DNA of 64,000 nt from an uncultured beta proteobacterium. GTDB taxonomy: Bacteria; Pseudomonadota; Gammaproteobacteria; Burkholderiales; Burkholderiaceae. Both the position numbers and the translations under genes were made by a program. The notes beneath the pieces were generated by a model, which saw nothing but the letters and a program-made list of their open reading frames with translations, made no database searches and was not told the DNA's origin. Below, piece after piece: positions 47,105-62,065 of this stretch (the first letter of the stretch is position 1; every line of letters starts with the position of its first letter). The DNA lies in contig CAIQHU010000179.1 in NCBI GenBank assembly GCA_903871735.1, positions 124,001 through 188,000 of the forward strand, written 5' to 3'.

Positions 47105-47126
47105 ATTTCTAATTATATGGAAATAT

Positions 47127-47144
47127 ATTTCATTTTGATGAAAT
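47127..47144. promoter_or_regulatory. Putative ArsR operator between arsR and arsH
   Basis: A perfect seven-base inverted repeat ATTTCAT-TTTG-ATGAAAT lies midway between the divergent starts. Size and place fit an operator controlling both directions. A second, looser repeat sits just beside the arsR ATG. Confidence 0.6.
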
Positions 47145-47197
47145 CTCGTATCTACTTGATAATTACAATACAGCTACTTTTTTATTAATATGCATTT

Positions 47198-47902
47198 ATG
47201 ACCGAACTTCCTAATATCGATAATCAACTTTTTAATAAGCCAAGTCTTGATGAATTTCAAAGTAACTCGTTCCAAAATCATCCGCCAAAGATATTGCTTT
47301 TATATGGCTCGCTCAGAGATAGGTCCTTTAGTCGCCTTTTGGCTGAAGAAGCCCAAAGGATATTAAAAGCGATGGGCTGTGAAACACGGTTTTTTAATCC
47401 CCACGGATTACCGCAAGTAGATGATGCCCCTGAAACACACCCTAAGGTAGTAGAACTAAGGGAACTCGTTCAATGGGCCGAAGGAATGGTTTGGAGTAGT
47501 CCCGAGCGTCATGGTGCAATGACTGGACTTATTAAATCTCAAATCGATTGGATACCTTTAAGCATTGGCGCTATTCGACCTTCTCAAGGTAAGACTTTAG
47601 CTTTATTACAAGTAAGTGGTGGTTCCCAATCCTTTAATGCTGTAAATCAAATGAGAATCCTAGGAAGATGGATGAGGATGATCGTGATTCCTAATCAATC
47701 ATCCGTTCCTAAAGCATTTTTAGAATTTGACGACAGCAATCGAATGAAGCCCTCGGCAAACTATGATCGTGTAGTTGACGTAATGGAAGAATTAGTTAAA
47801 TTTACTTTATTGACTCGATCTTTTTCTACTTATCTGACCGATCGCTATAGTGAGCGAAAAGAGAGTTCCGAGGAGTTGTCCCAGCGGGTAAACCAAAGGT
47901 GA
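47198..47902 (+). CDS. arsH: ArsH-type NADPH-dependent FMN reductase
   Basis: 234 residues. Flavodoxin-like FMN site [20 protein letters not shown], then [23 protein letters not shown], the ArsH hallmark, and [15 protein letters not shown]. ArsH oxidises trivalent methylated or aromatic arsenicals. Divergent from arsR across the operator. Its last bases adjoin a palindrome of the R2 type. Confidence 0.93.
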
Positions 47903-49482: not shown

Positions 49483-49543
49483 TGCTGTGGTTCGCGGCTT
49501 AATCAAACCATCAACACAAGGATTTTCAATCCTGCTTCTAGAC
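49483..49543 (-). repeat. R1 copy 0: degenerate tRNA-Phe 3' half, best anticodon arm
   Basis: On the minus strand CAGGATTGAAAATCC followed by TTGTGTTGATGG reproduces the anticodon stem-loop (anticodon GAA) and variable region of bacterial tRNA-Phe. A degraded T arm and acceptor end follow (GGTTTGATTAAGCCGCGAACCACA). The 5' half is absent, so it is not a working tRNA gene. This copy identifies the parent of all R1 repeats. Confidence 0.75.
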
Positions 49544-49745
49544 TACTTTCAGCTAAAATTTAATTTTTTATATGCGGTGGCGCAATCTCGTGCATAGAGA
49601 ATTATTAGGCGTTGAGTAGCTTCTACCCATTTATCTAGCATTGACTCTGTTTTGTCACTAACCAGTTAGGTTAAAACCGAGTTTGGCATAATCTTTCACC
49701 TAAAGATTACTTTGCATACATTCTATACAAACACGGCTGAATACC

Positions 49746-49842
49746 AAAAGAAAATTCCCCGCACAAAGCAGGGCATTATTTGATTTTAGTAGCCCAGGGC
49801 TGCATCGACCAGAACCTAAGATGCCTACTTCGTAATCGCAAT
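49746..49842 (-). repeat. R1 copy 1: tRNA-Phe 3'-half remnant plus hairpin
   Basis: On the minus strand a degraded T arm/acceptor (GATGCAGCCCTGGGCTACTA) is followed by AAAATCAAATAATGCCCTGC and a GC-rich hairpin with a T-run, a terminator-like arrangement. It lies 26 bases beyond the stop of the CBS gene, whose transcript would read into it in the tRNA sense. Confidence 0.7.
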
Positions 49843-49867
49843 CTCAATCATTTCTTTTCTATAAAGG

Positions 49868-50305
49868 TCAAACGCCATGACCTCTGATATAAGTCTCCAA
49901 AAACTTAATCTGATTATCTTGATGTTCCATAATGCTTTTCACAATATCGCCTACTGAAATAACTCCAATTACTTTATTTTTTTCTACGACGGGTAAATGC
50001 CTAATATGTTTGTGAACCATAATAGCCATACATTCTTCCAAAGAGTTAGTAAGTGATATTGTGAGTGGCTTGGCGGTCATAATTTTTGAGACCACTGTTT
50101 GCTTTGCATTGCTATTTGGTAGCAATACCTTAATGGCGCAATCTCCTTGAGAAACAATTCCCACTAATACTCCATCATCAATGACCAGGACTGATCTGAC
50201 GCGGTTATCACGCATCAATAACAAAGCAACTTCTACAGAATCAGATGATCTTACAGAGAAGATAGTATTGGTTTTTTGATCTATACATTGTTTCACAGTG
50301 GTCAT
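49868..50305 (-). CDS. Tandem CBS-domain protein
   Basis: 145 residues. CBS1 has LVGIVSQGDCAIKVLLPN and CBS2 HIRHLPVVEKNKVIGVISVGD. It is clearly paralogous to the protein at 43586-44014 (same length and identical HIRHLPVV), but CBS1 has QGDCA where the other has ERDYA. Probably a nucleotide sensor. The R1 repeat downstream likely terminates its transcript. Confidence 0.88.
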   Translation of the reverse strand: MTTVKQCIDQKTNTIFSVRSSDSVEVALLLMRDNRVRSVLVIDDGVLVGIVSQGDCAIKVLLPNSNAKQTVVSKIMTAKPLTISLTNSLEECMAIMVHKHIRHLPVVEKNKVIGVISVGDIVKSIMEHQDNQIKFLETYIRGHGV

Positions 50306-50520
50306 AACAATCTCCTAATCTTTACAAATTATAACTTCTAATAACAACCAAGTCCGAGGACACCCATACGCCAAGAGCTGATAAACTCCTCGATCAAAAC
50401 CTCCTGCTACCGGCGCTTGAATTATTGGTAAGTTAGGTCGGGAAACTAAAATACGGTAAAGGCATAGTAGTATTATTTATTTTTTGATATTCTAAATCTT
50501 TCTAATTCAACTTATTTTCC

Positions 50521-50841
50521 TTGAATATTTTCTGGATATCCCTCTTATTGGCAGGTTTTTTGGAGATTGGTTGGCCGCTTGGCTTAAAACTCGCCGATCT
50601 CCCCAATATGAAAATATGGGGAATAGTTGTGGCACTTATTAGCATGGCACTAAGCGGTCTACTACTTTGGTTTTCGCTTAAGGAAATTCCGATTGGAACG
50701 GCCTATGCTGTATGGACTTCTATTGGAGCTGTTGGTACGTTTACTATTGGTGTTCTAGTTTTTGGTGACCCCAATATTCCGCTCCGCTGGCTGGGTGTTG
50801 CCTTCATCCTGCTTGGAGTAATTTTGCTAAAGATGGGATAA
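50521..50841 (+). CDS. sugE: SMR-family SugE/Gdx guanidinium exporter
   Basis: 106 residues, four helices. LLLAGFLEIGWPLGLKLAD carries the membrane-embedded Glu of SMR proteins, and GTAYAVWTSIGAVGTFTIG is the Gdx/SugE subtype signature. It exchanges guanidinium for protons. The TTG start has no clear ribosome site. I looked for a guanidine riboswitch in the 215 bp upstream and did not find a convincing one. Confidence 0.9.
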   Translation: MNIFWISLLLAGFLEIGWPLGLKLADLPNMKIWGIVVALISMALSGLLLWFSLKEIPIGTAYAVWTSIGAVGTFTIGVLVFGDPNIPLRWLGVAFILLGVILLKMG

Positions 50842-50850
50842 GACGAGCTC

Positions 50851-51045
50851 AAGGAAAATGCCCCGCATCTCGCAGGGCATTATTTTGATTTTTGGTGGCC
50901 CGAGGCGGAATCGACTAGAGCTATGGACCATAATCCTATTGAATGTTTCTCGCCCTTACCCCCCTGAATAAAGGGAAACATCTTTTTTACCCATAATTGC
51001 CATCCCACCAGGATTTCAACTCCATTGCTAGACTCGACTTCGAAA
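50851..51045 (-). repeat. R1 copy 2: tRNA-Phe 3'-half remnant plus hairpin, interrupted
   Basis: Plus-strand order: hairpin AATGCCCCGC/GCAGGGCATT, then TTTTGATTTT, then TGGTGGCCCGAGGCGGAATC (reverse complement of a tRNA-Phe acceptor end and T arm). About 75 bases later comes a piece resembling the anticodon arm (ACCAGGATTTCAACTCC). The hairpin begins ten bases after the sugE stop and can end that transcript too. Confidence 0.75.
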
Positions 51046-51351
51046 CATCTATAGTTTTTTAATCAACTTTAAGTTAGGAAAATTTACAGGCGTTGTTAGA
51101 TAAATATCAAAATATTCCGTCGCATCAGTTTTGGGATCCTCCCAAAACTTTTTTTTACTAATTTCAGTTTTAAAATGGGGAATAGGTTTAATTGTTTATC
51201 TTTATTTACCATCGAAGCATATGGGAGTTTTCGAGCCTTGGTGAAGCCATAGTCATTACGCGCAGTTCTACCTTTAATTAAACTGGTTATGCCATTTTAA
51301 ATATACATGCGAACTTAATTCTTCCCAAGGGGCTGACAACTTGCACCCATC
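51046..51351 (-). other. Intergenic with a probable coding remnant
   Basis: Minus-strand positions 51180 to 51049 form an open stretch reading PHFKTEISKKKFWEDPKTDA, then EYFDIYLTTPVNFPN and LKLIKKL with a stop. No start codon or ribosome site precedes it, so it looks like the 3' end of a lost gene. It may belong with the truncated ORF at 51352. The family was not recognised. Confidence 0.35.
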
Positions 51352-51555
51352 TTATAACAACAATCCAGCCGAAAGAACAACACTTACATCATGATGAACA
51401 TTTTTATAATCTCTGCCTAAAGATACTGCTAAAGATTTAACATTTGTTTCCTTTACTTCAACTCCCTTAGACGCCTGATTCCAAACATTTGTAAAGCGAA
51501 TGGCCATATCTTGAAAACTTCCAACATGGGCTTGAACTTTAGTCGAATTTTTCAT
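51352..51555 (-). CDS. Short HTH protein, probably truncated antitoxin-like regulator
   Basis: 67 residues. The N-terminal VGSFQDMAIRFTNVWNQASKG and the helix-turn-helix VKSLAVSLGRDYKNVHHDV are those of the MarR-like antitoxin-type regulators whose HTH reads LGRDxKNVHRDV. Family members are about 100-130 residues; the segment joining the two parts and everything after the recognition helix are missing here. No toxin gene is adjacent. It is likely a decayed remnant, possibly still expressed. Confidence 0.5.
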   Translation of the reverse strand: MKNSTKVQAHVGSFQDMAIRFTNVWNQASKGVEVKETNVKSLAVSLGRDYKNVHHDVSVVLSAGLLL

Positions 51556-51886
51556 GTTTAATCGTTTCTATGTTAGGTAAGTTTAGTCGGCTTAGGATAT
51601 TTCCAAATCACCATTTCTACAATCAAACCACTAGGGAAAAGTATTGTCTCGTAGAAGATTCTTTTAGCACTCATATGGACTTTGTAGTCATACTTTAATA
51701 TGGTGTCATTAACCATTTTAATAGTGGATAATTTGAATAAAATCTTCACGATTTAAACTCATCAAATATTTTCTGACCTTTCTTCTTGGCAGAAGTAATA
51801 ACAACAGAGTGCATAAAGAACCTAAATAGTATTTGTGCTATTAGTAGCCTTCCGAATAGTTTTAAGTTAATTCGCTTTAGAGCTAG
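51556..51886. other. Intergenic region, nothing recognised
   Basis: AT-rich sequence between the truncated HTH gene and the 3' end of the histidine kinase gene. I found no ORF with a ribosome site, no strong hairpin with a T-run, and no repeat copy. Confidence 0.4.
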
Positions 51887-53353
51887 CTAGCGGGGGAATT
51901 TCACAACAAACTTAGCGCCTTCACCATGAGCTTCCTCATAATGAATCGAGCCACCATTTCTAGTGACAATGTGCTTACAAAGCCATAGCCCTAGCCCCAT
52001 GCCGGCTTGTCTAGTTGAGCTCAATAACTCAAAGAGGTGAGGTTTAAATTCATGGTGAACCCCTGTACCATTGTCTGAAACAGTTAAGTGAGCTGATACT
52101 CCAGAACTAATAGCTTCAATAGTAATTACGCGTTGGAGCTTTCCCGAATTTGCTAAAGCCTGCGCGGCGTTATTTACCAAGTTCAATATCACTTGTTCAA
52201 TTTCCGCTGGATTGACCTTAATTACTAAATCATCATCTACTCGAAGTTGAATTTGGATATTCTTAGATTTAAGTTCTGGTTTAACAATGTCTAAAACTTG
52301 AGATATTAAATCACCCAATTGAATTTTTTCGGCATTGGTTTCTCCTTCTGTAAATATTGACCTTAGCGATTTGACAATCGTAGTCGCCCTCTTATTGTCA
52401 TCTTCTAGAGAGTCTAAGATTTCTTTTCCCAACTCTGGAGTAAGAGCACCTTTTTCTAATTTCATTTTTAAAAATTGGATATTGAGATTAGTTGCTCCAA
52501 GAGGTTGATTGAGTTCGTGGGCAATTGATGCCGATAAAGCACCCGTAGCCGCAGTTTTGTTGGCTTTCATCAGACCATAGATGAGGCGCTCTTTTTCTTT
52601 TAAAAGCTCAGTAATTTTTTCATTCTCTTCTTTAGTAACCTTTAAGGCATTGGCAATTTGATTTTCTTTTCTAATTTGTTTTTCTAAATAAAAACTGCCC
52701 AGGGCCACATAGACTAATATCGTACTGCCATATCCAATCCATAAAAGAGTTAAAGCTAGAGCATCTTGGGCATATAAAAAGAAATTGGTTTGGGTACTTC
52801 CAATCAACACCCAAAGTGTTCTACAAGTTTCTCCTAGCAAAGTAAATGCTGTTAAAAAAATCAGCCATCTCACAACTAGAGTTCGGTCTACTTGGTAATA
52901 CTTTCTCAACTCCCAAATTTGCCATATCAAAAACAATTCTTGAGTAATTGTTATTAATGCTACACGTTGCTTAAAGGTTTCTGGTATTACTCTCAAGTAG
53001 TCATAAAAAAAGAATATAAAGACTGGAATGAGAGATAAAAGCAAAGCTTGATTCTTGGTGAATGGTCGTTGATTCCAAGAGCGGTATAAAAATATGAGAA
53101 GAAAAACCGAAATAATAAATGATGTATTTGCTATTGTGAGAAAAAACTTATGCGTCCACAAGGCAATACCAAAGCTTAAAGAGGACAGAGAAAAAATCCC
53201 TACGCTTAAGGGCCAATAAATGCTAAATCCACTTGCCTTATTAGCTCGATACTGATACACAGCACTTAAAAATAATCCTAGGCCAATTAAGGCAAAAGCG
53301 ATAAAAAAGATTTGGTTGGCTAATTCCATTAGCCAAATAGTACTAGAGATCAT
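51887..53353 (-). CDS. Sensor histidine kinase with seven-helix membrane sensor
   Basis: 488 residues from the ATG at 53353 (a TTG two codons earlier is possible). Seven or so membrane helices up to ~225, a coiled coil (RKENQIANALK...EKITELLKEKERL), HisKA with H279 in SASIAHELNQPLGATNLN, and HATPase with NLVNNAAQALAN, DNGTG and GMGLGLWLC. The H-box is of the FixL/DctB class. No regulator gene adjoins it. The start codon lies four bases from the R2 palindrome, so its promoter must lie in or beyond the repeat. Confidence 0.9.
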   Translation of the reverse strand: MISSTIWLMELANQIFFIAFALIGLGLFLSAVYQYRANKASGFSIYWPLSVGIFSLSSLSFGIALWTHKFFLTIANTSFIISVFLLIFLYRSWNQRPFTKNQALLLSLIPVFIFFFYDYLRVIPETFKQRVALITITQELFLIWQIWELRKYYQVDRTLVVRWLIFLTAFTLLGETCRTLWVLIGSTQTNFFLYAQDALALTLLWIGYGSTILVYVALGSFYLEKQIRKENQIANALKVTKEENEKITELLKEKERLIYGLMKANKTAATGALSASIAHELNQPLGATNLNIQFLKMKLEKGALTPELGKEILDSLEDDNKRATTIVKSLRSIFTEGETNAEKIQLGDLISQVLDIVKPELKSKNIQIQLRVDDDLVIKVNPAEIEQVILNLVNNAAQALANSGKLQRVITIEAISSGVSAHLTVSDNGTGVHHEFKPHLFELLSSTRQAGMGLGLWLCKHIVTRNGGSIHYEEAHGEGAKFVVKFPR

Positions 53354-53357
53354 TAAC

Positions 53358-53441
53358 AATGTCGTTTAAAACGACATTTCATGACGCAGATATCAACCGT
53401 TGCAACTAGAAGCTGAGCCTGAACACGACCACCCCTATAGT
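53358..53441. repeat. R2 repeat, copy a (with intact palindrome head)
   Basis: A perfect ten-base inverted repeat AATGTCGTTT-A-AAACGACATT (53358-53378) is followed by TCATGACGCAGATATCAACC, GTTGCAACTAG and CTGAACACGACCACCCCTATAGT. The body recurs at 60910 and 62099. The palindrome alone recurs after arsH and, with mismatches, at 57531. Confidence 0.75.
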
Positions 53442-53554
53442 CAAATGGTGGGGGAGGATCTTCCTTCCCCACTTGAACGGCTAGAACGCCGCACTTAGAC
53501 AACAAGTGCTGACTTTACGAAGGAAAACCATCAATTACTTGATAAACCAATAGA

Positions 53555-53640
53555 AATACAAACAGCCATCGAAAGGTGACTGTTTGGATTCTTGGTGGCC
53601 CATTGCAGAATCGACTAGGGCTCAGGATCTCAATTCTATG
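53555..53640 (-). repeat. R1 copy 3: tRNA-Phe 3'-half remnant plus hairpin
   Basis: Plus-strand order: hairpin CAAACAGCCATC-GAAA-GGTGACTGTTTG, GATTC, then TTGGTGGCCCATTGCAGAAT (acceptor/T arm) and CTCAGGATCTCAATTCTATG (degraded anticodon arm). The hairpin sequence differs from other copies while the tRNA part is shared. Confidence 0.7.
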
Positions 53641-54060
53641 GCGTTTTATTTGGACTTCTTATTTGCACAACCGTAATCTATGTATAAGCCATTTGGAGCT
53701 CTACAATTAGAATACAACGGGACGTGGTCATGAACCACGTTAGGCAATCTTCTTTTTTCAGGAATTAAATTGGTCTTGATTAAAAGGCTTGCCTGCAGCA
53801 AATACCAATACCTATTGAGCTAGCGGCAAAAACAAAAAATTGTAAATTGCTTTCATAGTCCTACAATTAGATTTGAGTAGTGAGAAAATTAAAGATTCTT
53901 GAAATTAAGCCCGTTTAGATAGTTTCAAGCGGTCGCCCTAAGAATCTCAGCACCAAGTATTTGAATATTTAATATCTTGTAAAATAGTAGCACTTTCTTT
54001 ACTTGTGGTTTTCTAGCTGTTTCATGAGAACTTTTACTAAAATACTAATAAGGTCTAAAA
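53641..54060. other. Intergenic upstream of the ABC-transporter operon
   Basis: A hairpin ACGTGGT-CATGA-ACCACGT (53722-53740) is followed by TAGGCAATCTTC and a T-run, possibly a terminator on the plus strand. On the minus strand 53850-53760 reads like the start of a small secreted protein (MKAIYNFLFLPLAQ, stop, then VLVFAAGKPFNQDQF), a likely dead fragment. The last ~100 bp must hold the operon promoter; no operator was evident. Confidence 0.35.
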
Positions 54061-54921
54061 ATGCAGAAACACAGTTTTATTAAATCTTTCTTTGCTTTTG
54101 CTCTTGTTGCGATAACTTCTGTTATTCAAGCTCAGCAAGTACTGCGTGTAACAACGATTCCTGAAGAAGCTGCAACAGAACAAATTAGAAAATTTGGTCC
54201 ACTGAGTCAGTATTTAGAGAAAAACCTTGGAATGAAAATTGAATTTACGCCTGTAACTGACTATCCGGCTGCAGTAGAAGCGTTGGTGAACAAGCAAGTT
54301 GATTTGGTTTGGTTTGGTGGCTTTACTTATGTTCAAGCCCAAATCAGATCAGGTGGAAAAATCATCCCTATTGCACAACGAGAAGAAGATACAAAGTTTC
54401 GCTCCGTCTTCATTACCCAAAAGAACTCAGGTATTACTAAGTTGACTGATTTAAAAGATAAGCAAGTCAGCTTTGGATCACAATCAAGCACCTCAGGACA
54501 CCTAATGCCACGCACCTATCTTTTAGAGGCTGGCCTCAATCCTGAAGCAGACTTTAAACGCATCGCCTATTCTGGCGCTCACGATGCAACAATTGCCTCT
54601 GTTGTGAGTGGTCGAGTAGATGCTGCAGCTCTTGACATCACCGTGTGGAATAAGTTTGTTTCTGAAAATAAAGTTGATACTAGCAAGGTAGATGTTTTCT
54701 ATACTACGCCTCCTTTTTTCAATTACAACTGGTCAGTTCATGCTGATATGCCAACCGTATTACGTGACAAGATTACAAAGGCTTTAATAGCTTTAAATAT
54801 GAATACGCCTGAAGGTAAGGAAATCCTTACCTTAAATCGTGCCACTAAATACATACTTACAAAGCCCGAGAATTACAAAGGTCTTGAGACAGCAGGCAAG
54901 AGTGCAGGTTTAATCAAGTAA
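54061..54921 (+). CDS. PhnD-like periplasmic binding protein (phosphonate/putative selenate ABC transporter)
   Basis: 286 residues. Signal peptide ending VIQAQ, then VLRVTTIPEEAATEQIRKFG, TPVTDYPAAVEALVNKQVDL, WFGGFTYVQAQIRSGGK and QSSTSGHLMPRTYLLEAGL. The family is PhnD-like; the TIPEEA and WFGGFT blocks resemble the subgroup annotated as putative selenate receptors. The oxyanion bound is not decidable here. First gene of a four-gene operon with one ATPase and two permeases. Confidence 0.87.
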   Translation: MQKHSFIKSFFAFALVAITSVIQAQQVLRVTTIPEEAATEQIRKFGPLSQYLEKNLGMKIEFTPVTDYPAAVEALVNKQVDLVWFGGFTYVQAQIRSGGKIIPIAQREEDTKFRSVFITQKNSGITKLTDLKDKQVSFGSQSSTSGHLMPRTYLLEAGLNPEADFKRIAYSGAHDATIASVVSGRVDAAALDITVWNKFVSENKVDTSKVDVFYTTPPFFNYNWSVHADMPTVLRDKITKALIALNMNTPEGKEILTLNRATKYILTKPENYKGLETAGKSAGLIK

Positions 54922-55764
54922 GTGAATTTAGATTTAAGAAAAATTGTTGCCAAACCTCCCTCAAATCAGAGGGAAACTTCTTTTCGACTGAAAGATATTT
55001 CACTTGATATTCAATCAGGTGAACATCTTGCAATTATTGGTCCATCTGGCTCAGGTAAAACAACACTCTTACAAGTAATAGCAGCAGCACTGAAACCAAT
55101 TTCTGGTGAATTAAATCTTAATGGTACTAACCCATGGGACTTATCAGTGAGTCAGTTGCAAGAATTACGCTCTAAATTATTTTATGCGCCACAGATACCT
55201 CCCCTACCGCCAAGACAAAGAGTTGTCACCACGCTAAGCTCTAGTCGTTTAACAGGGATGACTCTTGCTACAAGTCTTTTAAACCTGATTTATCCACAAC
55301 ATACCAAAGATGCAATGTCTGCCCTTGATTTATTTGATCTCCAAGAGAAAATTTGGAAAAGGGTTGATCACCTTTCTGGTGGAGAGCGCCAAAGAGTCGG
55401 ATTAGCTAGAGTTTTGATGAGTAGTGCAGAATTGTGGTTAGTTGACGAGCCGCTATCAGCCCTTGATCCTAAAAGATCTAAACAAGCTATTAGTACCTTA
55501 ATTACAGAGGCTAACAAAAGAGGAGCAACTTTAATTGTTACCCTCCACCAGATCGAAGTAGCAACTGGCAAATTCCCAAGAGTAATAGGTCTTAAAGATG
55601 GTTCTTTAGAATTTGATCTTGCAGCAGAGCTTGTTACAAAAAATATATTGCATGAGTTGTATGCAGACCATGAAGATGAACTGAATAGCTTTTCTACTTC
55701 CCAAGTGAATATTGTCGAGAATCTAGAAATACCAAAGACTTCAAATATCTGCAGACCTCAATAA
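54922..55764 (+). CDS. ABC transporter ATP-binding subunit (PhnC-like)
   Basis: 280 residues. Walker A GPSGSGKTT at 40-48, signature LSGGERQRVG, Walker B LWLVDEPLSALD and the H-loop His in VTLHQIE. It energises the transporter with the receptor and permeases around it. The GTG start immediately follows the receptor stop. It ends with a ~25-residue tail beyond the usual PhnC length. Confidence 0.88.
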   Translation: MNLDLRKIVAKPPSNQRETSFRLKDISLDIQSGEHLAIIGPSGSGKTTLLQVIAAALKPISGELNLNGTNPWDLSVSQLQELRSKLFYAPQIPPLPPRQRVVTTLSSSRLTGMTLATSLLNLIYPQHTKDAMSALDLFDLQEKIWKRVDHLSGGERQRVGLARVLMSSAELWLVDEPLSALDPKRSKQAISTLITEANKRGATLIVTLHQIEVATGKFPRVIGLKDGSLEFDLAAELVTKNILHELYADHEDELNSFSTSQVNIVENLEIPKTSNICRPQ

Positions 55765-56594
55765 TGTCTAGCGTGATTGCCCCTCAATTAAGAGATCCTG
55801 CGTGGTTTTCTCGTATCAGGTTTGGAGTGTTAGGTATCACTCTTTTAATACCGGCACTAGTTGCAACTGAATTTAAGCCCTGGCTGATATTTGAAGAACA
55901 AAACTTAAAAATTACACTTAAGTTTTTAGGGGACTTTTTCCCACCAAGCTTAGATCCCTCATTTTTGAAGATGATTGCTCTGGAGGCCTGGAAAACAATT
56001 GCTATTGCAACAGTTGGTATATTTCTGGCATTAATTCTCGCTATTCCGATGACTCTAATGAGTACAAGTGTTTTATCAATCTCCAGCCTCTCTGGAAAAA
56101 TGAATTTATTGCCTTTTGCACTGAGGCAGACCATCCGTTTGATTTTGATCTTTATGCGCAGTATTCCTGAATTAATCTGGGCGCTTGTATTTGTGCGTGT
56201 CGTTGGCTTGGGTCCTGCAGCTGGAGTTCTTGCCATTGCTTTGACATATGCAGGTATGCTGGGTAAGATTTATGGGGAGATTCTTGAAAGCGGCAACACT
56301 GATTCGAGTGAATGCTTGCTTCGCAATGGTGCTGGTAGACTACAAACTTTCTTCTACGCGGTCTTACCTCAAAACCTTAGTGAATTAACAAGCTATACGG
56401 TCTACCGCTGGGAGTGCGCGATCCGATCATCTGCCGTATTAGGATTTGTTGGTGCCGGTGGACTAGGCCAGCAAATGGATAACTCCATGCGCATGTTCAA
56501 TGGATCTGAAGTTTCAACAATTCTAATTATATTTATGATCCTTGTCGCTTTATCTGATTCGTTTAGCAATTTACTACGTAAACAGATTGCCTAA
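55764..56594 (+). CDS. ABC transporter permease (PhnE-like), first copy
   Basis: 276 residues, about six membrane helices. RSIPELIWALVFVRVVGLGP and YGEILESGNTDSSECLLRNG (EAA-type coupling loop) are PhnE features, followed by FVGAGGLGQQMDNSMRMF. The ATG overlaps the ATPase stop by one base. It is paired with a second, related permease, so the channel is probably a heterodimer. Confidence 0.88.
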   Translation: MSSVIAPQLRDPAWFSRIRFGVLGITLLIPALVATEFKPWLIFEEQNLKITLKFLGDFFPPSLDPSFLKMIALEAWKTIAIATVGIFLALILAIPMTLMSTSVLSISSLSGKMNLLPFALRQTIRLILIFMRSIPELIWALVFVRVVGLGPAAGVLAIALTYAGMLGKIYGEILESGNTDSSECLLRNGAGRLQTFFYAVLPQNLSELTSYTVYRWECAIRSSAVLGFVGAGGLGQQMDNSMRMFNGSEVSTILIIFMILVALSDSFSNLLRKQIA

Positions 56595-56595
56595 T

Positions 56596-57387
56596 ATGTT
56601 GAGAAAAGAAATTCAATCAAGGTTAAACAATTACTTCCTAATACTTGGGGTTCTTGGCATCACTATACTCAGCTTTTGGTCGCTTGATCTTCAGTTATCA
56701 AGACTTTTCTCAATGAGAAGCTTTCAATTGATGGCCAAGTTTTTTAATGAACTTTTATCTCCAAATTTAAGTTCGATATTTTTATCAAAAATTCTTGTTG
56801 CCTCACTAGAAACAATTGCTATGTCAGCGGTTGGTACATTAGTTGCTGCAGTGCTTGGCATCCTGCTAGCTCTACCTGCAAGCAAGACTAACCCAAATGA
56901 CCCAGCTATTTTAAGAAGTCCGGCCAGATGGTTATTGAATGCTCTTCGATCCATACCGGAGTTGGTATGGGCTGCTCTATTATTGATTTCTGTTGGTCTT
57001 GGACCTTTTGCTGGTACCCTGGCATTAGGTTTGCATACTACTGGCGTTCTTGGAAGATTGTTTGCAGAATCTATTGAAAATACGAATACTCACGCAAGTG
57101 AATCTTTAAGATTTATAGGCGTTAGCGAATTAAGAATATTCTTATATGCAACACTTCCAACCGTACTTCCTCAATTGATCTCATACACGCTTTACCGTTG
57201 GGAAAATAATATTCGTGCAGCAGCAATACTAGGTGTTGTTGGTGGTGGCGGGTTAGGACAAATGCTAGCCTTCCACATGGGTCTGTTTCAAATGGAAGAA
57301 GCCAGTACTATATTGATATCGATGATTGGACTAGTCGTTATGGTTGACAGCCTGTCTTATTGGCTACGAAAATCAATCGAACGTTAA
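56596..57387 (+). CDS. ABC transporter permease (PhnE-like), second copy
   Basis: 263 residues from the ATG at 56596, one base after the previous stop; an upstream opening at 56542 lies inside the other permease and adds no family sequence. RSIPELVWAALLLISVGLGP, FAESIENTNTHASESLRFIG and GVVGGGGLGQMLAFHMGLF parallel the first permease, showing an old duplication. End of the operon. A tRNA-like scrap and R2/R1 repeats follow. Confidence 0.88.
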   Translation: MLRKEIQSRLNNYFLILGVLGITILSFWSLDLQLSRLFSMRSFQLMAKFFNELLSPNLSSIFLSKILVASLETIAMSAVGTLVAAVLGILLALPASKTNPNDPAILRSPARWLLNALRSIPELVWAALLLISVGLGPFAGTLALGLHTTGVLGRLFAESIENTNTHASESLRFIGVSELRIFLYATLPTVLPQLISYTLYRWENNIRAAAILGVVGGGGLGQMLAFHMGLFQMEEASTILISMIGLVVMVDSLSYWLRKSIER

Positions 57388-57530
57388 GTTGGTTCTCTTC
57401 GATATCTTGGCTTGCCAAGCACGATTCGAACTCGCGGCCGACGCCTCATAAGTGCCCAACCCTCAATAGATTCAAAGTTTCTTGTTGGATAAAGGCTGCC
57501 AATCAAAAGATAGCGAACTCACTAAAGTAC
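57388..57530. other. Intergenic with a tRNA-like fragment
   Basis: At about 57416-57450 the minus strand has GGCCGCGAGTTCGAATCGTG, a good T-arm with the TTCGAATC loop, preceded by TTATGAGGCGTC. No complete cloverleaf could be folded, so this is a scrap of a tRNA gene different from tRNA-Phe. Confidence 0.4.
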
Positions 57531-57570
57531 TTATCGTTTAAAACAACATCAACCATCACTGGGATATCTA
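57531..57570. repeat. R2-type fragment (palindrome head, degenerate)
   Basis: TTATCGTTT-A-AAACAACAT differs by one base from the combination of the two intact palindromes and is followed by CAACCATCACTGGGATATC, which has only loose similarity to the R2 body. It lies 80 bp before R1 copy 4. Confidence 0.5.
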
Positions 57571-57650
57571 AATGATTTGTCCTTTTAAAGAATGCCCCTT
57601 GGTGGGAATATCCGAGGTCAATGGTACCTAATCCTGCCAAGCCTTAAAAA

Positions 57651-57745
57651 GAAAATAGCCCAACAAGTGGGCTATTTTGATTCTTGATGGCCCGGGGCGG
57701 AATAGACCAAAGCTTGAAGATGCTTCATCCTATTTCTATCTTTCC
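57651..57745 (-). repeat. R1 copy 4: tRNA-Phe 3'-half remnant plus strong terminator hairpin
   Basis: A perfect eleven-base stem AAAATAGCCCA-ACAAG-TGGGCTATTTT (57652-57678) is followed on the plus strand by GATTCTTGATGGCCCGGGGC and GGAATAGACCAAAGC (acceptor end and T arm in reverse). In the minus-strand sense it stands directly after the stop of the gene at 57753, so that gene's mRNA would carry the tRNA piece and then the terminator. Confidence 0.8.
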
Positions 57746-57752
57746 CAGTGGA

Positions 57753-58346
57753 CTACTTCTTGGGAGTAGTTACTTCGATCGCAATGATCTCGGTAACCAA
57801 GGCCTCAATTTGTGTGCCCACCTTTACGTTTTTGAGTACTTTAGGGTCTTTTACCTTAATCTCCAAAGTGCGCGTTGCGCCACTAACTGTAAGCGTGCCT
57901 TTTTTCTCATCAATGGCGGTTACATCTGCAACGATAGTTACTTGGCGTTCAATTGCTGCTGCAGGTTTGTCGCCCAGTTTTGCGGTCACAGCTTTCTCAG
58001 TTTCGATGCGCTCCCGAATCTCTGCTTTTGCTGGCTTCTTAATATCAGCAACTAAAATCTCTAGGTGTGTAAGGGTCACGATATCGCCCACTTTAATTTG
58101 GTTTAAGTTCTTAACCTCATCGCCCAAAGTAATTTTAAACTCGTTGCCATTGGGACCAACAATAACTACTTGACGAGTTTTTTGGTCAACGGATTTAAAC
58201 TTACCTTGGAACTGAACGCCCTCGGCAACTTTTAGCGCGCTTGGGGCAATTTCTACAGCAACTACGGCTTGTGGCTTGTTTTGGGCAATGACAGCGCTAC
58301 TGCCCATCAGCAATACGGCTGCGCTTGCTAGTGCAATTTTTTTCAT
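57753..58346 (-). CDS. Periplasmic protein with two tandem beta-rich repeats
   Basis: 197 residues. Signal peptide MKKIALASAAVLLMGSSAVIAQ. Repeat 1 (about 45-100) has FKSVDQKTRQVVIVGPNGNE and NLNQIKVGDIV; repeat 2 (about 135-190) has VTAIDEKKGTLTVSGATRTL and VLKNVKVGTQIEAL. Each looks like a small beta barrel of the kind common in secreted proteobacterial proteins of unknown role. GC content and codon use appear higher than in the neighbours. Flanked on both sides by R1 repeats. Confidence 0.8.
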   Translation of the reverse strand: MKKIALASAAVLLMGSSAVIAQNKPQAVVAVEIAPSALKVAEGVQFQGKFKSVDQKTRQVVIVGPNGNEFKITLGDEVKNLNQIKVGDIVTLTHLEILVADIKKPAKAEIRERIETEKAVTAKLGDKPAAAIERQVTIVADVTAIDEKKGTLTVSGATRTLEIKVKDPKVLKNVKVGTQIEALVTEIIAIEVTTPKK

Positions 58347-58473
58347 ATAGGATCTTTCGAATAGTTGTACAACAAAAATATCTCGATTGAGAATAACATT
58401 TTAATGATAACGGCTTAAGTTTGAGTTGTTCTTACCAATAAATCAGCCAGATCGAAATCCTATCGGCGATACA

Positions 58474-58564
58474 AAAAAGAAAATACCTCACACAAAGCAG
58501 GGCACTATTTGATGTTGGTGACCCGGGGTGGAGTCGACCACGGCCTAGGATATTGATTCTATCT
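58474..58564 (-). repeat. R1 copy 5: tRNA-Phe 3'-half remnant plus hairpin
   Basis: Plus-strand order: GAAAATACCCTCACACAAAG-type imperfect hairpin, TTTGATG, TTGGTGACCCGGGGTGGAGT (acceptor/T arm) and CTAGGATATTGATTCTAT (degraded anticodon arm). It ends at the very stop codon of the SbtA-like gene. Confidence 0.75.
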
Positions 58565-59519
58565 AGTAAGTTAGCCCAACAATATAGGTATAAAGTGGAA
58601 TTCCTAAGATGATATTGAAAGGGAATGTAATGCCTAATGACATCCCCATATACAAAGCAGGATTTACCTCAGGAAGTGCGTGTCTTAATACAGCTGGCAC
58701 GGCAATATAAGAAGCGCTCGCGGCAAGTACCATCAATAAAATAGTATCGCCCATTGGCAAACCTAACAATTTACAAAGCCCCAATGCGATAGAAGCGTGT
58801 ACCAGTGGAGCGCCAATCGCATAAAAAAAAGTGATTGGTGGTTTTCCTTTTAATCCCTCAAAGTTCTTAGCCGCCATCAAGCCCATATCGAGCAGAAAGA
58901 AAGCAAGCATTCCTTTGAATAAATCGATTGAAAATGGAGCCATTATTTTTTGCCCACTTTCACCACTTACTAAACCAACGATCATAGAGCCCAACAATAA
59001 AAGCTGTGCACCATCAGTAAATGATTCGTGAAAAATCTTTGACATTACTACGGACTGTTTTGAATTTGTTGTTGATGTCCTCGCTTTATTTACTAATAAG
59101 ATTGCCAAGATAATTGCGGGAGACTCCATAAGAGCCATTGCGGCAGCCATATGTCCGCCAAACTCAATACCATTTTGATCAAGTGCTTGCGTCGCGGTAA
59201 TAAAAGTAACTGCGCTTACCGAACCGTAGGTAGCCGAAATAGCAGCCGCATCATAGTTATTGAGTTTGGTTCTTAAAAACAAATAACCGATCAAAGGAAT
59301 GATGATTGCCAAAAATACTGCCAAGCCAAGCGCCAGAGCAATCTCTGTAGTAAATCCTGATTTTTGGAGCGCAAAGCCACCCTTTAAACCCAGAGCCATC
59401 AAGAGATATAGGGATAAAAATCTAGCTATAGGCTGAGGAACCTCTAGGTTAGATTTCACAGCGCCAGCAAAAGCACCAAATACAAAAAAGAGAATTGCTG
59501 GGTCTAAAAAATTACTCAT
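58563..59519 (-). CDS. SbtA-like sodium-dependent bicarbonate transporter family permease
   Basis: 318 residues, about ten membrane helices in two inverted halves. LFFVFGAFAGAVKSNLEVPQ at the start, SATYGSVSAVTFITATQAL in the first half and the corresponding AASASYIAVPAVLRHALPE in the second are the DUF897/SbtA marks. Cyanobacterial SbtA imports bicarbonate with Na+. A heterotroph may use it for anaplerotic CO2 fixation. No SbtB-like regulator is next to it. Confidence 0.87.
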   Translation of the reverse strand: MSNFLDPAILFFVFGAFAGAVKSNLEVPQPIARFLSLYLLMALGLKGGFALQKSGFTTEIALALGLAVFLAIIIPLIGYLFLRTKLNNYDAAAISATYGSVSAVTFITATQALDQNGIEFGGHMAAAMALMESPAIILAILLVNKARTSTTNSKQSVVMSKIFHESFTDGAQLLLLGSMIVGLVSGESGQKIMAPFSIDLFKGMLAFFLLDMGLMAAKNFEGLKGKPPITFFYAIGAPLVHASIALGLCKLLGLPMGDTILLMVLAASASYIAVPAVLRHALPEVNPALYMGMSLGITFPFNIILGIPLYTYIVGLTY

Positions 59520-59739
59520 ATCTACTGTATCCTAGGTATTTAGAAAATTATTGTCTTATCACCACATAGCCTGATAAGTGTATGTAGGCCCATGATTTTG
59601 GATGCCTGCAGTAGAATTGAAATACAAATGTGCATTTAAAACGACTGCCACGAAGGCGGGAACGTAAAAGTTACTTGATGTTAAAGAAAGTTTCTTAATA
59701 AGGATATCCAAGAGAAATGGTGCCAAACCAAAACCAACG

Positions 59740-59907
59740 CTAGTTACTCTTATTAATTTTAGGTTGATAGCCTAGACAAGCTATGCTGGTATTTACTAAA
59801 ACTTGAACTTCTGGAGTGGTCTTTGATTTAATTTCATACAACTTACAGCTATATGGAAACTTCTTATCCCAGGTTATATAGAAAAATTTACATGCTTTAC
59901 AATTCAT
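59740..59907 (-). CDS. Small Cys-containing protein of an uncharacterised family
   Basis: 55 residues from the ATG at 59907, which has GGAG six bases upstream; a longer reading from 59925 lacks this. MNCKACKFFYITWDKKFPYS then CKLYEIKSKTTPEV has Cys at 3, 6, 21 and 44. I recall small bacterial proteins of the form CxxCxxFyvTWDxxfPygCk..g.kSk, function unknown, possibly metal-binding. Here the usual final part (C-x-x-F) is altered to CLGYQP. Confidence 0.65.
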   Translation of the reverse strand: MNCKACKFFYITWDKKFPYSCKLYEIKSKTTPEVQVLVNTSIACLGYQPKINKSN

Positions 59908-59940
59908 TAAATACTCCAATATCAATTGATTGGCAACTTA

Positions 59941-60024
59941 AATAATTGCCTCACATAAAGCAGGGTATTATTAATTTTGTGGCCAGGGAAAGATACGGAC
60001 AAGGCCTAGGATGTCAGATTTTGC
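59941..60024 (-). repeat. R1 copy 6: tRNA-Phe 3'-half remnant plus hairpin (strongly degraded)
   Basis: Plus-strand order: GCCTCACATAAAGCAGGGTA, TTATTAATTTTGTGGCCAGGG, then CAAGGCCTAGGATGTCAGAT. Comparison with copies 1 and 5 shows the same order of hairpin, T-rich spacer, acceptor/T arm and anticodon arm. It ends at the stop codon of the winged-helix gene. Confidence 0.6.
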
Positions 60025-60378
60025 CTAACTATTTCTCATAGCCTTCTCGAGACATGCAGATATATGCTCATATTGCTTTAAGGCTTTTGCTGTGGGCGTG
60101 ACAAACTTCTTACGGCCATCGGTCTTATCTTCATTTAGCTTGACATAGCCCATCGCGACTAAATTCTTAATGCGCCCATGAAGTGTGGCTTGTGAACCAA
60201 GCTTAGTTAGGGAGATTAAATCACCGACTAATAGACCTTCGCCTTCGGAAGCGGCCAAGGTAATTTTATTGAGAAGTTGCTCTTCGATTACGTTTATCTT
60301 TTTGCCAGGATTAATTTGATCTAGGTTATCCAAGTATTTCAAAAATCGAATGTAAGCGTAGGGTTTAATAGGTTTCAT
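60025..60378 (-). CDS. Winged-helix (MarR-like) transcriptional regulator
   Basis: 117 residues. EEQLLNKITLAASEGEGLLV, SLTKLGSQATLHGRIKNLVA (recognition helix) and GYVKLNEDKTDGRKKFVTPT (wing) fit a MarR/PadR-like fold. Target unknown. Its ATG overlaps the stop (ATGA) of a decayed small ORF upstream, so it was once the second gene of a pair. Confidence 0.78.
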   Translation of the reverse strand: MKPIKPYAYIRFLKYLDNLDQINPGKKINVIEEQLLNKITLAASEGEGLLVGDLISLTKLGSQATLHGRIKNLVAMGYVKLNEDKTDGRKKFVTPTAKALKQYEHISACLEKAMRNS

Positions 60379-60493
60379 TGCTGCCCCTTATAACTAGCTT
60401 CAACATCAGCAAATTGATCTTTAGCAATGGCTGAACCTTTTGGAGTTGCCCCTTTAAAACTAACAAGGATGTAACAAAAAAAAGTTTTTTCAT
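60375..60493 (-). pseudogene. Frameshifted small secreted-protein gene upstream of the winged-helix gene
   Basis: From the ATG at 60493 the minus strand reads MKKLFFVTSLLV, a signal-peptide start; after a frame change within or near a run of eight T the sequence continues FKGATPKGSAIAKDQFADVE, ASYKGQQ and a stop that overlaps the next ATG. The length (119 bases) is not a multiple of three. Weak but coherent. Confidence 0.35.
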
Positions 60494-60909
60494 TCTAACT
60501 TGCCTTATTAAGCATTTCAATTAAGTTTCATTACGTTGTTTAAGTCTTATTCGACAACTCTTTTAATTGTAAAAAATTATTTGTAACTTTTTACAGTTCC
60601 AATATAGAGTTAGTTATATTCTCAATAAATCAGAAGTTAATTGATTATTATTCTGTTTTTTACTGAATATTTAATTAAAATAATTTTTATCAAGAGAACA
60701 AGGGTGTGTTGAAAGTACTCGCTATCTATCGAATACTTTGGTCGCTTAGACAATTTCTACCCTCTCATCTCAAGCGGGCATTCCATAATGACGATAATAC
60801 GAAATCTATTTAAAAGGGTAACTTTTATCAACTTACGGTATCAACTTAGTATGAAGTTTTTAACGAAATCGGCCAACGCAATCGATTCATCATTTCCCAT
60901 TATGAAAAA
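60494..60909. other. Intergenic region, nothing recognised
   Basis: Very AT-rich in its first half. I saw no ORF with a ribosome site and no hairpin with a T-run before the R2 copy that begins at 60910. Confidence 0.4.
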
Positions 60910-60970
60910 TCCTTTACAAGGACATTGAATGACGCAGAGTTCTACCGTTACGTAACTAGGCACTGTCTCC
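60910..60970. repeat. R2 repeat, copy b
   Basis: TCCTTTACAAGGA takes the place of the palindrome head, followed by CATTGAATGACGCAGAG, CTACCGTTACGTAACTAG and CACTGTCTCC. The block ATGACGCAGA plus ACCGTT..AACTAG is shared with copy a at the same spacing. The central GTTACGTAAC is itself palindromic. Confidence 0.65.
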
Positions 60971-61029
60971 GAAAAAAGCCATATCAACTGTCGAGACGGT
61001 AGGACAGGATTACTCATTCTCGAAAACCA

Positions 61030-61061
61030 AGCGTCTAATACTTAGACGCTGAAGTTTTTTT
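61030..61061 (+). terminator. Rho-independent terminator, plus strand, without an obvious gene
   Basis: A perfect nine-base stem AGCGTCTAA-TAC-TTAGACGCT is followed by GAAG and seven T. No plus-strand gene lies within 1 kb upstream, so it may end a small RNA, a read-through from R2, or a decayed transcription unit. Confidence 0.75.
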
Positions 61062-61187
61062 GATTGGACTCGCCAGTCGAATATGTTTAGAGCCGTAAAC
61101 AAGATTTGGTATCCTGAATGCCAAGCTTAACCATACTTTCCATTGTTTACTATAGATAGGATATTGAACTGTTTTAATGTCACTGGG

Positions 61188-61250
61188 TTCTTGATGGCCC
61201 GGGGGCAGAATCGAACAGGGAGTCAGAAATTCTTATCCTAATTCTAATTC
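61188..61250 (-). repeat. R1 copy 7: tRNA-Phe 3'-half remnant
   Basis: TTCTTGATGGCCCGGGGGCA then GAATCGAACAGGGAG is the best-preserved T-arm end (GAATCGAAC). A degraded anticodon arm follows (CAGAAATTCTTATCC). The hairpin part is not clear in this copy. It lies just upstream of the manganese riboswitch leader. Confidence 0.7.
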
Positions 61251-61309: not shown

Positions 61310-61315
61310 TCATAT

Positions 61316-61483
61316 GTCACTAGGGAGTAGCCGCTCTTTTCTAAAGAAGATGGCTTACATCAACATACTTAAGCTTAGGCTTATGGTGTAAGCGGTTTAA
61401 TACTTGGCAAGACTTTTGACTACATACACTTACTTAGGCTGTGGGTGGTTTGTAGTCATTTGTTTATGTCACAGCCTAGAGGA
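61316..61483 (+). promoter_or_regulatory. yybP-ykoY manganese riboswitch leader
   Basis: The conserved loops are present in order: GGGAGTAGCC (61323-61332), the arm GCTTACATC...GGTGTAAGC with ACATCAACATACTT, and GGCAAGAC before the closing segment. Downstream, TGACTACA (61417) can pair with TGTAGTCA (61451), while TAGGCTGTG (61435) can pair with CACAGCCTA (61470), the latter ending against the ribosome site GAGGA. These are two alternative folds suited to translational control. Mn(II) binding is known for the class, and it precedes a Mn exporter gene here. Confidence 0.9.
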
Positions 61484-61492
61484 CTTGGCCAC

Positions 61493-62065
61493 ATGCATTC
61501 CCTTCTGATCTCCACTGGAGTTGTGGCACTTGCTGAAATGGGTGATAAAACCCAATTGCTGGCCTTTATTCTTGCCGCACGCTTTAAAAAACCTATACCC
61601 ATTGTTCTTGGCATCCTTGCAGCAACCATCATCAATCACAGCTTAGCGGGTGCTTTAGGTGCTTGGATTACTTCTATAGTGAACCCTGAAATGTTTCGCT
61701 GGGTTCTAGGCGCATCTTTTATTGGTATGGCAATTTGGACATTAATTCCTGACAAGATTGAAGAGGAAGAAACCCAAGTTGCTAATCACTTGGGTGTATT
61801 TGGAGCAACCTTTATTACCTTCTTTTTGGCTGAGATGGGTGACAAGACGCAATTGGCCACTATTGCCTTAGCGGCTCACTATACGACTCCTTTTATTGTT
61901 GTTGTGGGTACTACATTGGGTATGTTGATTGCTGATATACCAGCGGTATTTGTTGGTAATCAGTTTTCAAAAAAAATCTCCATGAAATTAGTCCACTCAA
62001 TCGCCGCCGGCATCTTCGCAGTAATGGGTGTGCTGACACTCTTTGGAATTGATAAATTACTTTGA
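61493..62065 (+). CDS. UPF0016/Gdt1-family manganese exporter
   Basis: 190 residues from the ATG at 61493; an opening at 61445 lies within the riboswitch leader and is rejected. Six helices in two repeats, each with the ExGDKTQ motif (LAEMGDKTQLLAF and LAEMGDKTQLATI). The family includes yeast Gdt1, human TMEM165 and bacterial Mn exporters such as MneA. The riboswitch upstream supports Mn efflux as its job. Confidence 0.92.
   Translation: MHSLLISTGVVALAEMGDKTQLLAFILAARFKKPIPIVLGILAATIINHSLAGALGAWITSIVNPEMFRWVLGASFIGMAIWTLIPDKIEEEETQVANHLGVFGATFITFFLAEMGDKTQLATIALAAHYTTPFIVVVGTTLGMLIADIPAVFVGNQFSKKISMKLVHSIAAGIFAVMGVLTLFGIDKLL

What the first reader, a model, noticed from the sequence alone, without database searches (positions are those of the whole stretch)
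49483..61250. Family of at least eight tRNA-Phe 3'-half repeats, all in one orientation, most with a terminator hairpin
Seen: eight places (49483, 49746, 50851, 53555, 57651, 58474, 59941, 61188) share TGGTGGCCCGGGGCGGAATC-like sequence, the reverse complement of a tRNA-Phe acceptor end and T arm, usually followed by a degraded anticodon arm. The copy at 49483 keeps GGATTGAAAATCC with anticodon GAA. Six copies also share, on the CCA side, a T-rich spacer and a GC hairpin. Known: integrative elements often use tRNA 3' ends as attachment sites and leave partial copies behind. Inferred: serial insertion (island accretion) at one tRNA-Phe gene; since the remnants are minus-strand, the intact gene should lie to the right of 61.3 kb. 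No integrase was found among the intervening genes, which is unusual for simple islands.
Basis: partly seen in the sequence, partly recalled or inferred. Interest (0 to 1): 0.85.

Follow-up and report, generated by a model that had tools for sequence, protein, structure and literature searches.

The report
Gene-cassette array at tRNA-Phe gene
In this freshwater bacterium and its relatives, small cassettes of one or a few genes appear to have been added one after another behind a single essential tRNA gene, each bringing a replacement tRNA end and a likely stop signal but no visible enzyme to move itself, much as integrons collect genes but with a tRNA gene as the docking site.

Summary
The repeats are real: 8 of 8 places in the window, plus four beyond its end on the same contig, all one orientation. 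The genus is Polynucleobacter. The window's own assembly lacks its native tRNA-Phe gene. In 38 of 38 genus-mate loci fetched the intact gene sits at the predicted end; 34 have displaced copies behind it. Copies decay with distance from the gene (within-array permutation p=0.0002), as serial insertion predicts. The 'degraded anticodon arm' is, in most copies, a conserved ~24-bp element-side arm, so each repeat reads as a recombination site [terminator-like hairpin – tRNA T-loop to CCA – arm]. Intervals with this arm (121 of 200, plus 53 unclassified) are short (medians 1.1 and 0.9 kb) and gave no hit with two recombinase profiles. A second class (26 of 200, homology to the anticodon loop) is larger; 7 carry two recombinases. 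Single cassettes recur between species in different neighbourhoods, usually more alike than a flanking core gene (24 of 28 non-independent pairs). Best reading: a recombinase-less cassette array at tRNA-Phe, moved by a recombinase acting in trans. The enzyme is unidentified; excision was not testable. New variant of tRNA-targeted accretion.

The parts
49487..49544 (-). Leftmost copy: tRNA-Phe 3' half including the anticodon arm (GGATTGAAAATCC in the sense direction), T arm and acceptor end degraded
   Evidence: local alignment score 33 against shuffle maximum 15
49746..49831 (-). Site 2: terminator-like hairpin, degraded tRNA-Phe T-loop-to-CCA core (5 mismatches), element arm
   Evidence: profile E 1.5e-6
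49868..50305 (-). Cassette gene: CBS-domain protein
   Evidence: Pfam CBS 3.5e-25, two stretches; 81% and 79% identical proteins in a type-1 interval of G017 and an unclassified one of G058
50521..50841 (+). Gene in the same interval: small multidrug resistance (SMR) family protein
   Evidence: Pfam Multi_Drug_Res 2.2e-18
50851..50935 (-). Site 3: terminator-like hairpin, core with 1 mismatch, arm
   Evidence: profile E 2.3e-10
51887..53359 (-). Cassette gene: sensor histidine kinase
   Evidence: Pfam HATPase_c and HisKA; relatives in an unclassified interval of G058 (84%) and a type-1 interval of G080 (73%)
53555..53640 (-). Site 4: hairpin, core with 4 mismatches, arm
   Evidence: profile E 4.1e-9
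54061..57387 (+). Cassette operon: phosphonate-type ABC transporter (binding protein, ATPase, two further proteins taken to be permeases)
   Evidence: Pfam Phosphonate-bd 1.3e-70, ABC_tran 4.4e-31; ORFs; the two permeases were not scanned (inference from the operon)
57651..57735 (-). Site 5: hairpin, core with 2 mismatches, arm
   Evidence: profile E 3.8e-13
57753..58346 (-). Cassette gene, no Pfam family at E 0.001
58474..58565 (-). Site 6: hairpin, core with 3 mismatches, arm
   Evidence: profile E 1e-8
58563..59519 (-). Cassette gene: sodium-dependent bicarbonate transporter (Sbt_1 family)
   Evidence: Pfam Sbt_1 1.4e-110; 92% identical proteins in type-1 intervals of G076 and G106
59941..60025 (-). 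Site 7: degraded hairpin and core; only the arm is recognised by the profile
   Evidence: profile E 0.048, the weakest of the eight; sequence
60025..60378 (-). Cassette gene: winged-helix (MarR-like) regulator
   Evidence: Pfam HTH_27 1e-5 above its cut-off, MarR_2 just below its cut-off
61186..61241 (-). Site 8: core with an inserted base, arm; no clear hairpin
   Evidence: profile E 6.1e-7

Best explanation
A tandem array of small mobile gene cassettes added one after another at a single tRNA-Phe gene. Each cassette carries, at the end that joins the tRNA gene, the tRNA sequence from the T loop to CCA followed by its own terminator-like hairpin, and at the other end a ~24-bp arm. A site-specific recombinase exchanges strands in or beside the T loop (TTCGATT): the newcomer rebuilds the essential tRNA gene and gives it a new terminator, and the old 3' end is pushed downstream with the newcomer's arm attached. 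Repeated rounds leave the row of [hairpin – core – arm] units. The cassettes lack a recognisable recombinase and so must be moved in trans; the likeliest suppliers are elements of the second class, which encode two tyrosine recombinases, or other transient elements. Shown: structure, polarity, decay order, shared cassettes in different contexts, one single-cassette presence/absence. Inferred: T-loop strand exchange, a trans-acting recombinase, circular intermediates, terminator function.
For: Intact tRNA-Phe at the predicted end in 38 of 38 genus-mate loci, 34 of which hold displaced copies. Mismatch to the core rises with rank from the tRNA: 200 copies, 0 of 5,000 within-array permutations as extreme, p=0.0002; pooled Spearman 0.19. 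Conserved arm: 0.16-1.63 bits at each of 24 positions, at most 0.22 after, n=139. 212 of 238 copies (200 displaced and 38 intact genes) fold at -8 kcal/mol or lower in the 45 nt after CCA, against 41 of 238 shuffled and 100 of 304 random 45-mers from the same loci; at the intact gene the hairpin falls in five named sequence classes and two others among species. No hit of either recombinase profile in 174 type-1 or unclassified intervals, but both in 7 of 26 second-class intervals; an eighth recombinase-bearing interval, in G013 and outside the counted set, is also second class. 26 interval families with two or more members, 75 members. Cassette identity above a flanking core gene in 24 of 28 pairs, medians 89.5% and 76.8%. 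1 of 24 adjacent family pairs conserved. At a second, non-tRNA locus G106 has one 484-bp cassette plus one repeat copy that G030 lacks. Longest cassette ORF in the tRNA direction in 98 of 123 non-redundant intervals.
Against: No recombinase was tied to the small cassettes. In 20 genomes searched with PF00589, only two Xer-like proteins are common to all (read off); that model misses some copies of the large recombinase, so the survey is incomplete. The native tRNA-Phe of this genome is not in the assembly. No circular or excised form was observed. Hairpin class agrees in 65 of 97 same-family pairs across genomes and in 263 of 637 same-genome pairs of different families (6,108 of 19,165 for neither), so hairpins have also been exchanged and part of the mixing may be homologous recombination. 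Decay with rank is modest. The sorting of copies uses my own rules; 53 of 200 intervals stayed unclassified, matches at 4-5 mismatches may include chance ones, and some arrays reach beyond the fetched stretch (G013, G072). The 28 identity pairs are not independent (10 come from one family).
Confidence: 0.7

Rival explanations
1. Ordinary island accretion: each interval is the remnant of a normal integrase-bearing island that lost its integrase by deletion.
For: Recombinase-bearing elements do sit in the same arrays (7 of 26 second-class intervals); tRNA-targeted accretion is well known.
Against: 174 intervals without a recombinase hit, many flanked by intact cores; the same cassette recurs at almost the same length in several species (947-953 bp in seven), so the short form itself spreads; the arm differs from that of the recombinase-bearing class.
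Confidence: 0.13
2. Cassettes are moved mainly by homologous recombination between the ~100-bp repeat units (after DNA uptake or transduction), with no site-specific recombinase today.
For: Hairpins differ between members of one family; in the G106/G030 comparison the hairpin at the end of the shared neighbouring cassette differs too; strong homologous recombination in P. asymbioticus is reported (PMC5644125, passages seen).
Against: Decay ordered from the tRNA points to insertion at the tRNA end; a conserved arm with a sharp 24-bp limit is not needed for homologous recombination.
Confidence: 0.13
3. A dispersed tRNA-derived repeat (MITE- or SINE-like) that scattered copies.
For: Many copies per genome and some outside the tRNA-Phe locus.
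Against: Copies at the tRNA-Phe locus lie in one orientation, downstream of one gene, with an ordered decay.
Confidence: 0.02
4. A true integron with unusual attC sites.
For: Mostly co-oriented small cassettes, toxin-antitoxin cassettes and a shared gene pool resemble integron arrays.
Against: No recombinase hit in the small-cassette intervals and none common to 20 genomes except two Xer-like ones; repeats are tRNA 3' ends beside an intact tRNA gene; integron core motifs were not recognised by eye (motifs recalled).
Confidence: 0.02

Closest known systems
tRNA/tmRNA-targeted island accretion and cis-mobilizable elements, e.g. Dehalococcoides ssrA islands (PMC3146451, passages seen)
   Same: Rows of islands bounded by direct repeats of the 3' end of one tRNA-like gene; 15 of the 31 islands in that paper lack the integration module
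   Different: There the integrase is a serine recombinase on 16 islands; here most intervals are about 1 kb and have a conserved arm of their own, and none of 174 gave a recombinase hit
Additive flexible genomic islands: fGI-2 of 'Ca. Methylopumilus' (PMC10872708, passages seen) and the concept as stated for Alteromonas (PMC5217437, passages seen)
   Different: No element-side arm, self-supplied hairpin or single-cassette exchange between species at the repeats was described in the passages I saw; Methylopumilus islands are given as 330 bp-42 kb
Genomic islands of Polynucleobacter asymbioticus (PMC5644125, passages seen, citing Hoetzinger 2017, which is not held)
   Same: Exchange of islands between Polynucleobacter species is already reported there and attributed mainly to illegitimate recombination, possibly through phages
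   Different: 'tRNA', 'integrase' and 'repeat' do not occur in that paper's main text; the 2017 island paper itself was not seen and may describe parts of this locus
Tycheposons (only the description in PMC10872708 was seen; the original paper was not read)
   Same: tRNA-associated cargo elements in aquatic bacteria with a tyrosine recombinase
   Different: Described as 4-200 kb and recombinase-bearing; the small cassettes here are neither
Chromosomal integrons (recalled)
   Same: Shared pool of small, mostly co-oriented cassettes including toxin-antitoxin genes
   Different: Docking site is a tRNA gene; no integron integrase or attC-type site recognised (not tested with a profile)

Membership tests
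tRNA-targeted island accretion / cis-mobilizable elements | Direct repeats of a tRNA 3' end downstream of the intact gene, one orientation | tested here: met
   38 of 38 genus-mate loci hold the intact gene at the end of the locus, 34 with displaced copies; not testable in the window's own assembly
tRNA-targeted island accretion / cis-mobilizable elements | Older remnants farther from the gene | tested here: met
   within-array permutation p=0.0002, modest effect
tRNA-targeted island accretion / cis-mobilizable elements | Recombinase in the element, or one that mobilises it in trans | tested here: inconclusive
   no profile hit in 174 small intervals; two recombinases in 7 of 26 second-class intervals; action in trans not shown
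tRNA-targeted island accretion / cis-mobilizable elements | Excision as a circle | not testable with these tools
   needs reads or PCR
Integron | IntI integrase next to the array | tested here: inconclusive
   no tyrosine recombinase common to 20 genomes other than two Xer-like ones; no IntI-specific model was run
Integron | attC sites and attI | not tested
   only looked at by eye against recalled motifs
Tycheposon | Large (4-200 kb) element with a tyrosine recombinase | tested here: not met
   small cassettes: medians 1.1 and 0.9 kb, no recombinase hit; size limits from PMC10872708 passages. Second-class elements were not tested for membership

The most novel reading that the evidence does not exclude
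An integron-like system built on an essential tRNA gene: a genus-wide pool of recombinase-free one- to few-gene cassettes with a dedicated site, each supplying the replacement 3' end and terminator of tRNA-Phe, mobilised in trans by unrelated visiting elements and passed between species as single cassettes.
Probability: 0.4. Interest if true: 0.78.

Novelty: new variant of a known kind. Interest (0 to 1): 0.62.

Why it matters
It would give freshwater bacteria of this genus a way to trade single adaptive genes (bicarbonate transport, phosphonate uptake, toxin-antitoxin pairs) between species at one locus, and it raises a testable question: which recombinase moves cassettes that carry none. It also suggests why each element brings a terminator-like hairpin: insertion separates an essential tRNA gene from its own.

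Tried and rejected
Minihelix idea: in the sense direction arm and core could pair as GGCCC...GGGCC with a CCA end. In the 71 exact-core copies of one group, substitutions that keep a G-U pair (29 of 213 cells) are no commoner than those that break it (20 of 142), so no sign of selection on a folded RNA. Two further stem positions were fixed by how that group was chosen.

Phage carriage: the exact small-cassette site gave 0 hits in viral contigs (exact pattern only), and of 18 stretches matching peptide patterns of the small recombinase none was confirmed. Distant relatives of that recombinase exist in phage (89 records) and plasmid records (1,020), all under 60% identity, which decides nothing.

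Recombinase among cassette genes: five Pfam scans of 124 longest ORFs showed no integrase or transposase among the families printed. The lists were cut at 25 families (12 of 12, 25 of 33, 25 of 27, 25 of 47, 25 of 33 shown), so weaker matches could be missed. Second ORFs (55 listed) were not scanned as a set. An empty-site search for the second G106 locus in G030 found nothing, which shows nothing.

A possible counter-example was checked: in G013 both recombinases lie left of the first counted copy. The copy bounding that interval is second class, in line with the rule.

The single 3-mismatch hits TGGTGCC(C/T)CGGGGCGGACT(T/C)GA occur about once per genome away from the array and are probably another tRNA gene (not tested), so counts at up to 3 mismatches can run one too high per genome.

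Literature: Hoetzinger 2017 (AEM), Williams 2002 and PMC7936036 were not held. Searches (lists of 20 of 81, 20 of 587, 15 of 2,158 and 2 of 2 papers) showed no paper whose title or abstract start describes this array; some searches were wider. This covers only the held open library.
Full report
What is there. Eight places between 49.48 and 61.24 kb hold the reverse complement of the tRNA-Phe 3' end, all in the same orientation. Seven are found by a profile trained only on other species, one of them weakly (60000, E 0.048); the eighth, 49487-49544, is a 3' half that still includes the anticodon arm. Four further copies lie beyond the window on the same contig. Over seven contigs of this assembly there are 25 profile hits at E up to 0.1, in one orientation within each contig (I turned the contigs, so only within-contig agreement counts). 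The genus is Polynucleobacter: contig lengths of relatives G010, G012, G033, G058, G059, G070, G079 and G113 equal those of named Polynucleobacter records that hold the site. The window's genome itself is unnamed.

Where the gene is. The native tRNA-Phe was not found in this assembly; the only tRNA-Phe found, on contig C186, looks foreign. In the genus sample, 107 of 121 genomes have the gene by a 69-nt pattern at up to 3 mismatches (one, G109, twice) and 117 of 121 have at least one copy of the 22-mer, the intact gene included. I fetched the locus from 38 genus-mates, chosen mostly among closed or well-assembled genomes. The intact gene was found in 38 of 38. No copy in the same orientation at up to 5-6 mismatches lay beyond it; the stretch seen beyond ran from 118 bases (G011) to 21 kb, and one 6-mismatch match in the other orientation turned up in G058 (L104). 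Thirty-four loci have displaced copies; G103, G031, G120 and G060 show none there.

Two classes of unit. Cut at copies with up to 5 mismatches, the 38 loci give 200 intervals: 121 with the type-1 arm (median 1,112 bp), 53 that my rule did not classify and that look mostly like altered type-1 arms (median 865 bp), and 26 of a second type whose homology to the tRNA runs to the anticodon loop (median 4,796 bp). Some arrays reach further left than was fetched (G013, G072). Among 139 copies not of the second type with up to 2 mismatches, the arm carries 0.16 to 1.63 bits at each of 24 positions and then at most 0.22. Arm and core form an imperfect inverted repeat about the T loop, and arms differ in having GACCA or GAACCA beside it, which I read as strand exchange in or next to the T loop. 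That is inference.

Order and mobility. Excluding the gene itself, mismatch rises with rank from the gene (200 copies; 0 of 5,000 permutations within arrays as extreme; pooled Spearman 0.19, p 0.008). There are 26 families of two or more similar intervals (75 members; 125 singletons); one family lies within one genome and two are second class. Examples are a 947-953-bp cassette in seven genomes and a 645-677-bp cassette in eight. Of 24 adjacent pairs of shared families one is kept in a second genome. With looser grouping, neighbours found again in another array are next to each other in the same order 24 times and in reverse order 19 times of 163 (inflated by one large merged family). In 25 of 38 loci the yardstick response-regulator gene was found; in the 28 family pairs where both genomes had it, cassette identity is higher in 24 (medians 89.5% and 76.8%; Wilcoxon p 2.8e-6, which treats pairs as independent although 10 come from one family). 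Of the four exceptions two differ by under 3 points (one family), and two involve closer relatives (core 96.5% and 88.2%), one of them second class. In one pair the cassette is 100% identical over 478 bp while the core gene is 74.5%. At a second, non-tRNA locus G106 and G030 (core gene 96.5% identical) differ by one 484-bp cassette with one extra repeat copy. This is the clearest case of a single-cassette difference, but the copies in G030 are decayed and the hairpin at the far end of the neighbouring cassette differs too, so a larger replacement is not excluded.

Terminators. In the 45 nt following the tRNA 3' end, 212 of 238 copies (200 displaced, 38 intact genes) fold at -8 kcal/mol or lower, against 41 of 238 shuffles and 100 of 304 random 45-mers from the same loci. 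Regular expressions of mine sort them into six sequence classes plus 23 others. At the intact gene the classes are A 22, B 8, E 3, D 2, F 1, other 2. So the hairpin behind an essential tRNA gene differs between species, as expected if each newcomer brings one. Members of one family can differ in class (65 of 97 pairs alike), so hairpins are also exchanged separately. That they terminate transcription was not tested.

Recombinases. In the 20 genomes searched, PF00589 finds two proteins in all that I take for the host Xer pair (by score, length and conservation; label not tested) and otherwise a varying set; G023, G106, G011 and G090 have one more each. The model missed the large recombinase of G025 at E 0.001, so it does not see everything. 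A profile of the ~190-aa recombinase hits seven second-class intervals and none of the other 174; the same holds for a ~420-aa recombinase in those seven, which matches PHROG integrases. Outside the counted intervals the pair also occurs in G013, in an interval bounded by a second-class copy, and on the 5' side of the gene in several genomes (small: G017, G070, G078, G090, G120; large: G017, G033, G059 in two pieces, G078, G090, G120). The window's own genome has seven PF00589 hits, one of them in the window (7742-8227) and none in the array.

Cargo. In the window: CBS protein, SMR transporter, histidine kinase, phosphonate-type ABC transporter, bicarbonate transporter, MarR-like regulator. 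In the relatives: bicarbonate transporters, carbonic anhydrases, patatins, lipid A acyltransferase, BrnT and Phd/YoeB-like toxin-antitoxin genes and others (lists capped at 25 families). The longest ORF runs in the tRNA direction in 98 of 123 non-redundant intervals with one of 80 aa or more.

Range. The exact small-cassette site was found in 14 of 299 genomes of the family sample (1 of 25 genera) and 5 of 399 of the order sample (1 of 158 genera), always this genus. An exact pattern misses many real copies, so these are lower bounds. Of 78 stretches in species genomes, 53 carry Polynucleobacter in the record title; the other 25 are 12 'uncultured beta proteobacterium', 8 Burkholderiaceae and 1 Burkholderiales MAGs, 2 Alcaligenaceae MAGs, 1 record titled actinobacterium, and the isolate Zwartia panacis. 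Zwartia and the two Alcaligenaceae MAGs show two to four copies each, so the system is probably not confined to one genus; misbinning of the MAGs was not tested.

Verdict. The accretion reading stands for the genus and very probably for the window. The arm, the hairpins, the size of the cassettes and the absence of a recognised recombinase make it a distinct variant of tRNA-targeted accretion. That islands pass between Polynucleobacter species is already in print (PMC5644125, passages); the locus, site and cassettes described here were not seen in the papers I could search. The moving enzyme is not identified.

Noticed in passing
window 61310-61486: Manganese (yybP-ykoY) riboswitch directly before a GDT1-family cation transporter gene (61445-62065), beside the last site in the window.
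   Followed up: no
window 45637-47902: Four genes that look like aquaporin, ArsC, ArsR and ArsH (by eye, no family search) and whose products are 82-90% identical to those of one 2,457-bp type-1 interval of G015; no site was recognised around them here, so the array may once have reached further left.
   Followed up: partly
L097 (G017), L090 (G117), L100 (G103): Copies of the 5' half of tRNA-Phe lie 10.1, 2.5 and 1.9 kb upstream of the intact gene (0, 0 and 6 mismatches), as if elements restoring the 5' half had inserted on the other side; in G017 both recombinases lie between.
   Followed up: partly
L106, L107 (G106), L233 (G058), L234 (G009): Groups of copies at non-tRNA loci whose last copy is a tRNA-Phe half ending at or near the anticodon loop, suggesting that array pieces moved to secondary sites; in L233 both recombinases lie beyond it.
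   Followed up: partly
L091:10260-14904: A recurring module of small recombinase, an unknown protein, a clamp-loader-like ATPase and a large recombinase in second-class elements.
   Followed up: partly
G000:C186 (L069) 5978-6052: A tRNA-Phe gene without encoded CCA on a small contig of this assembly, probably contamination.
   Followed up: no
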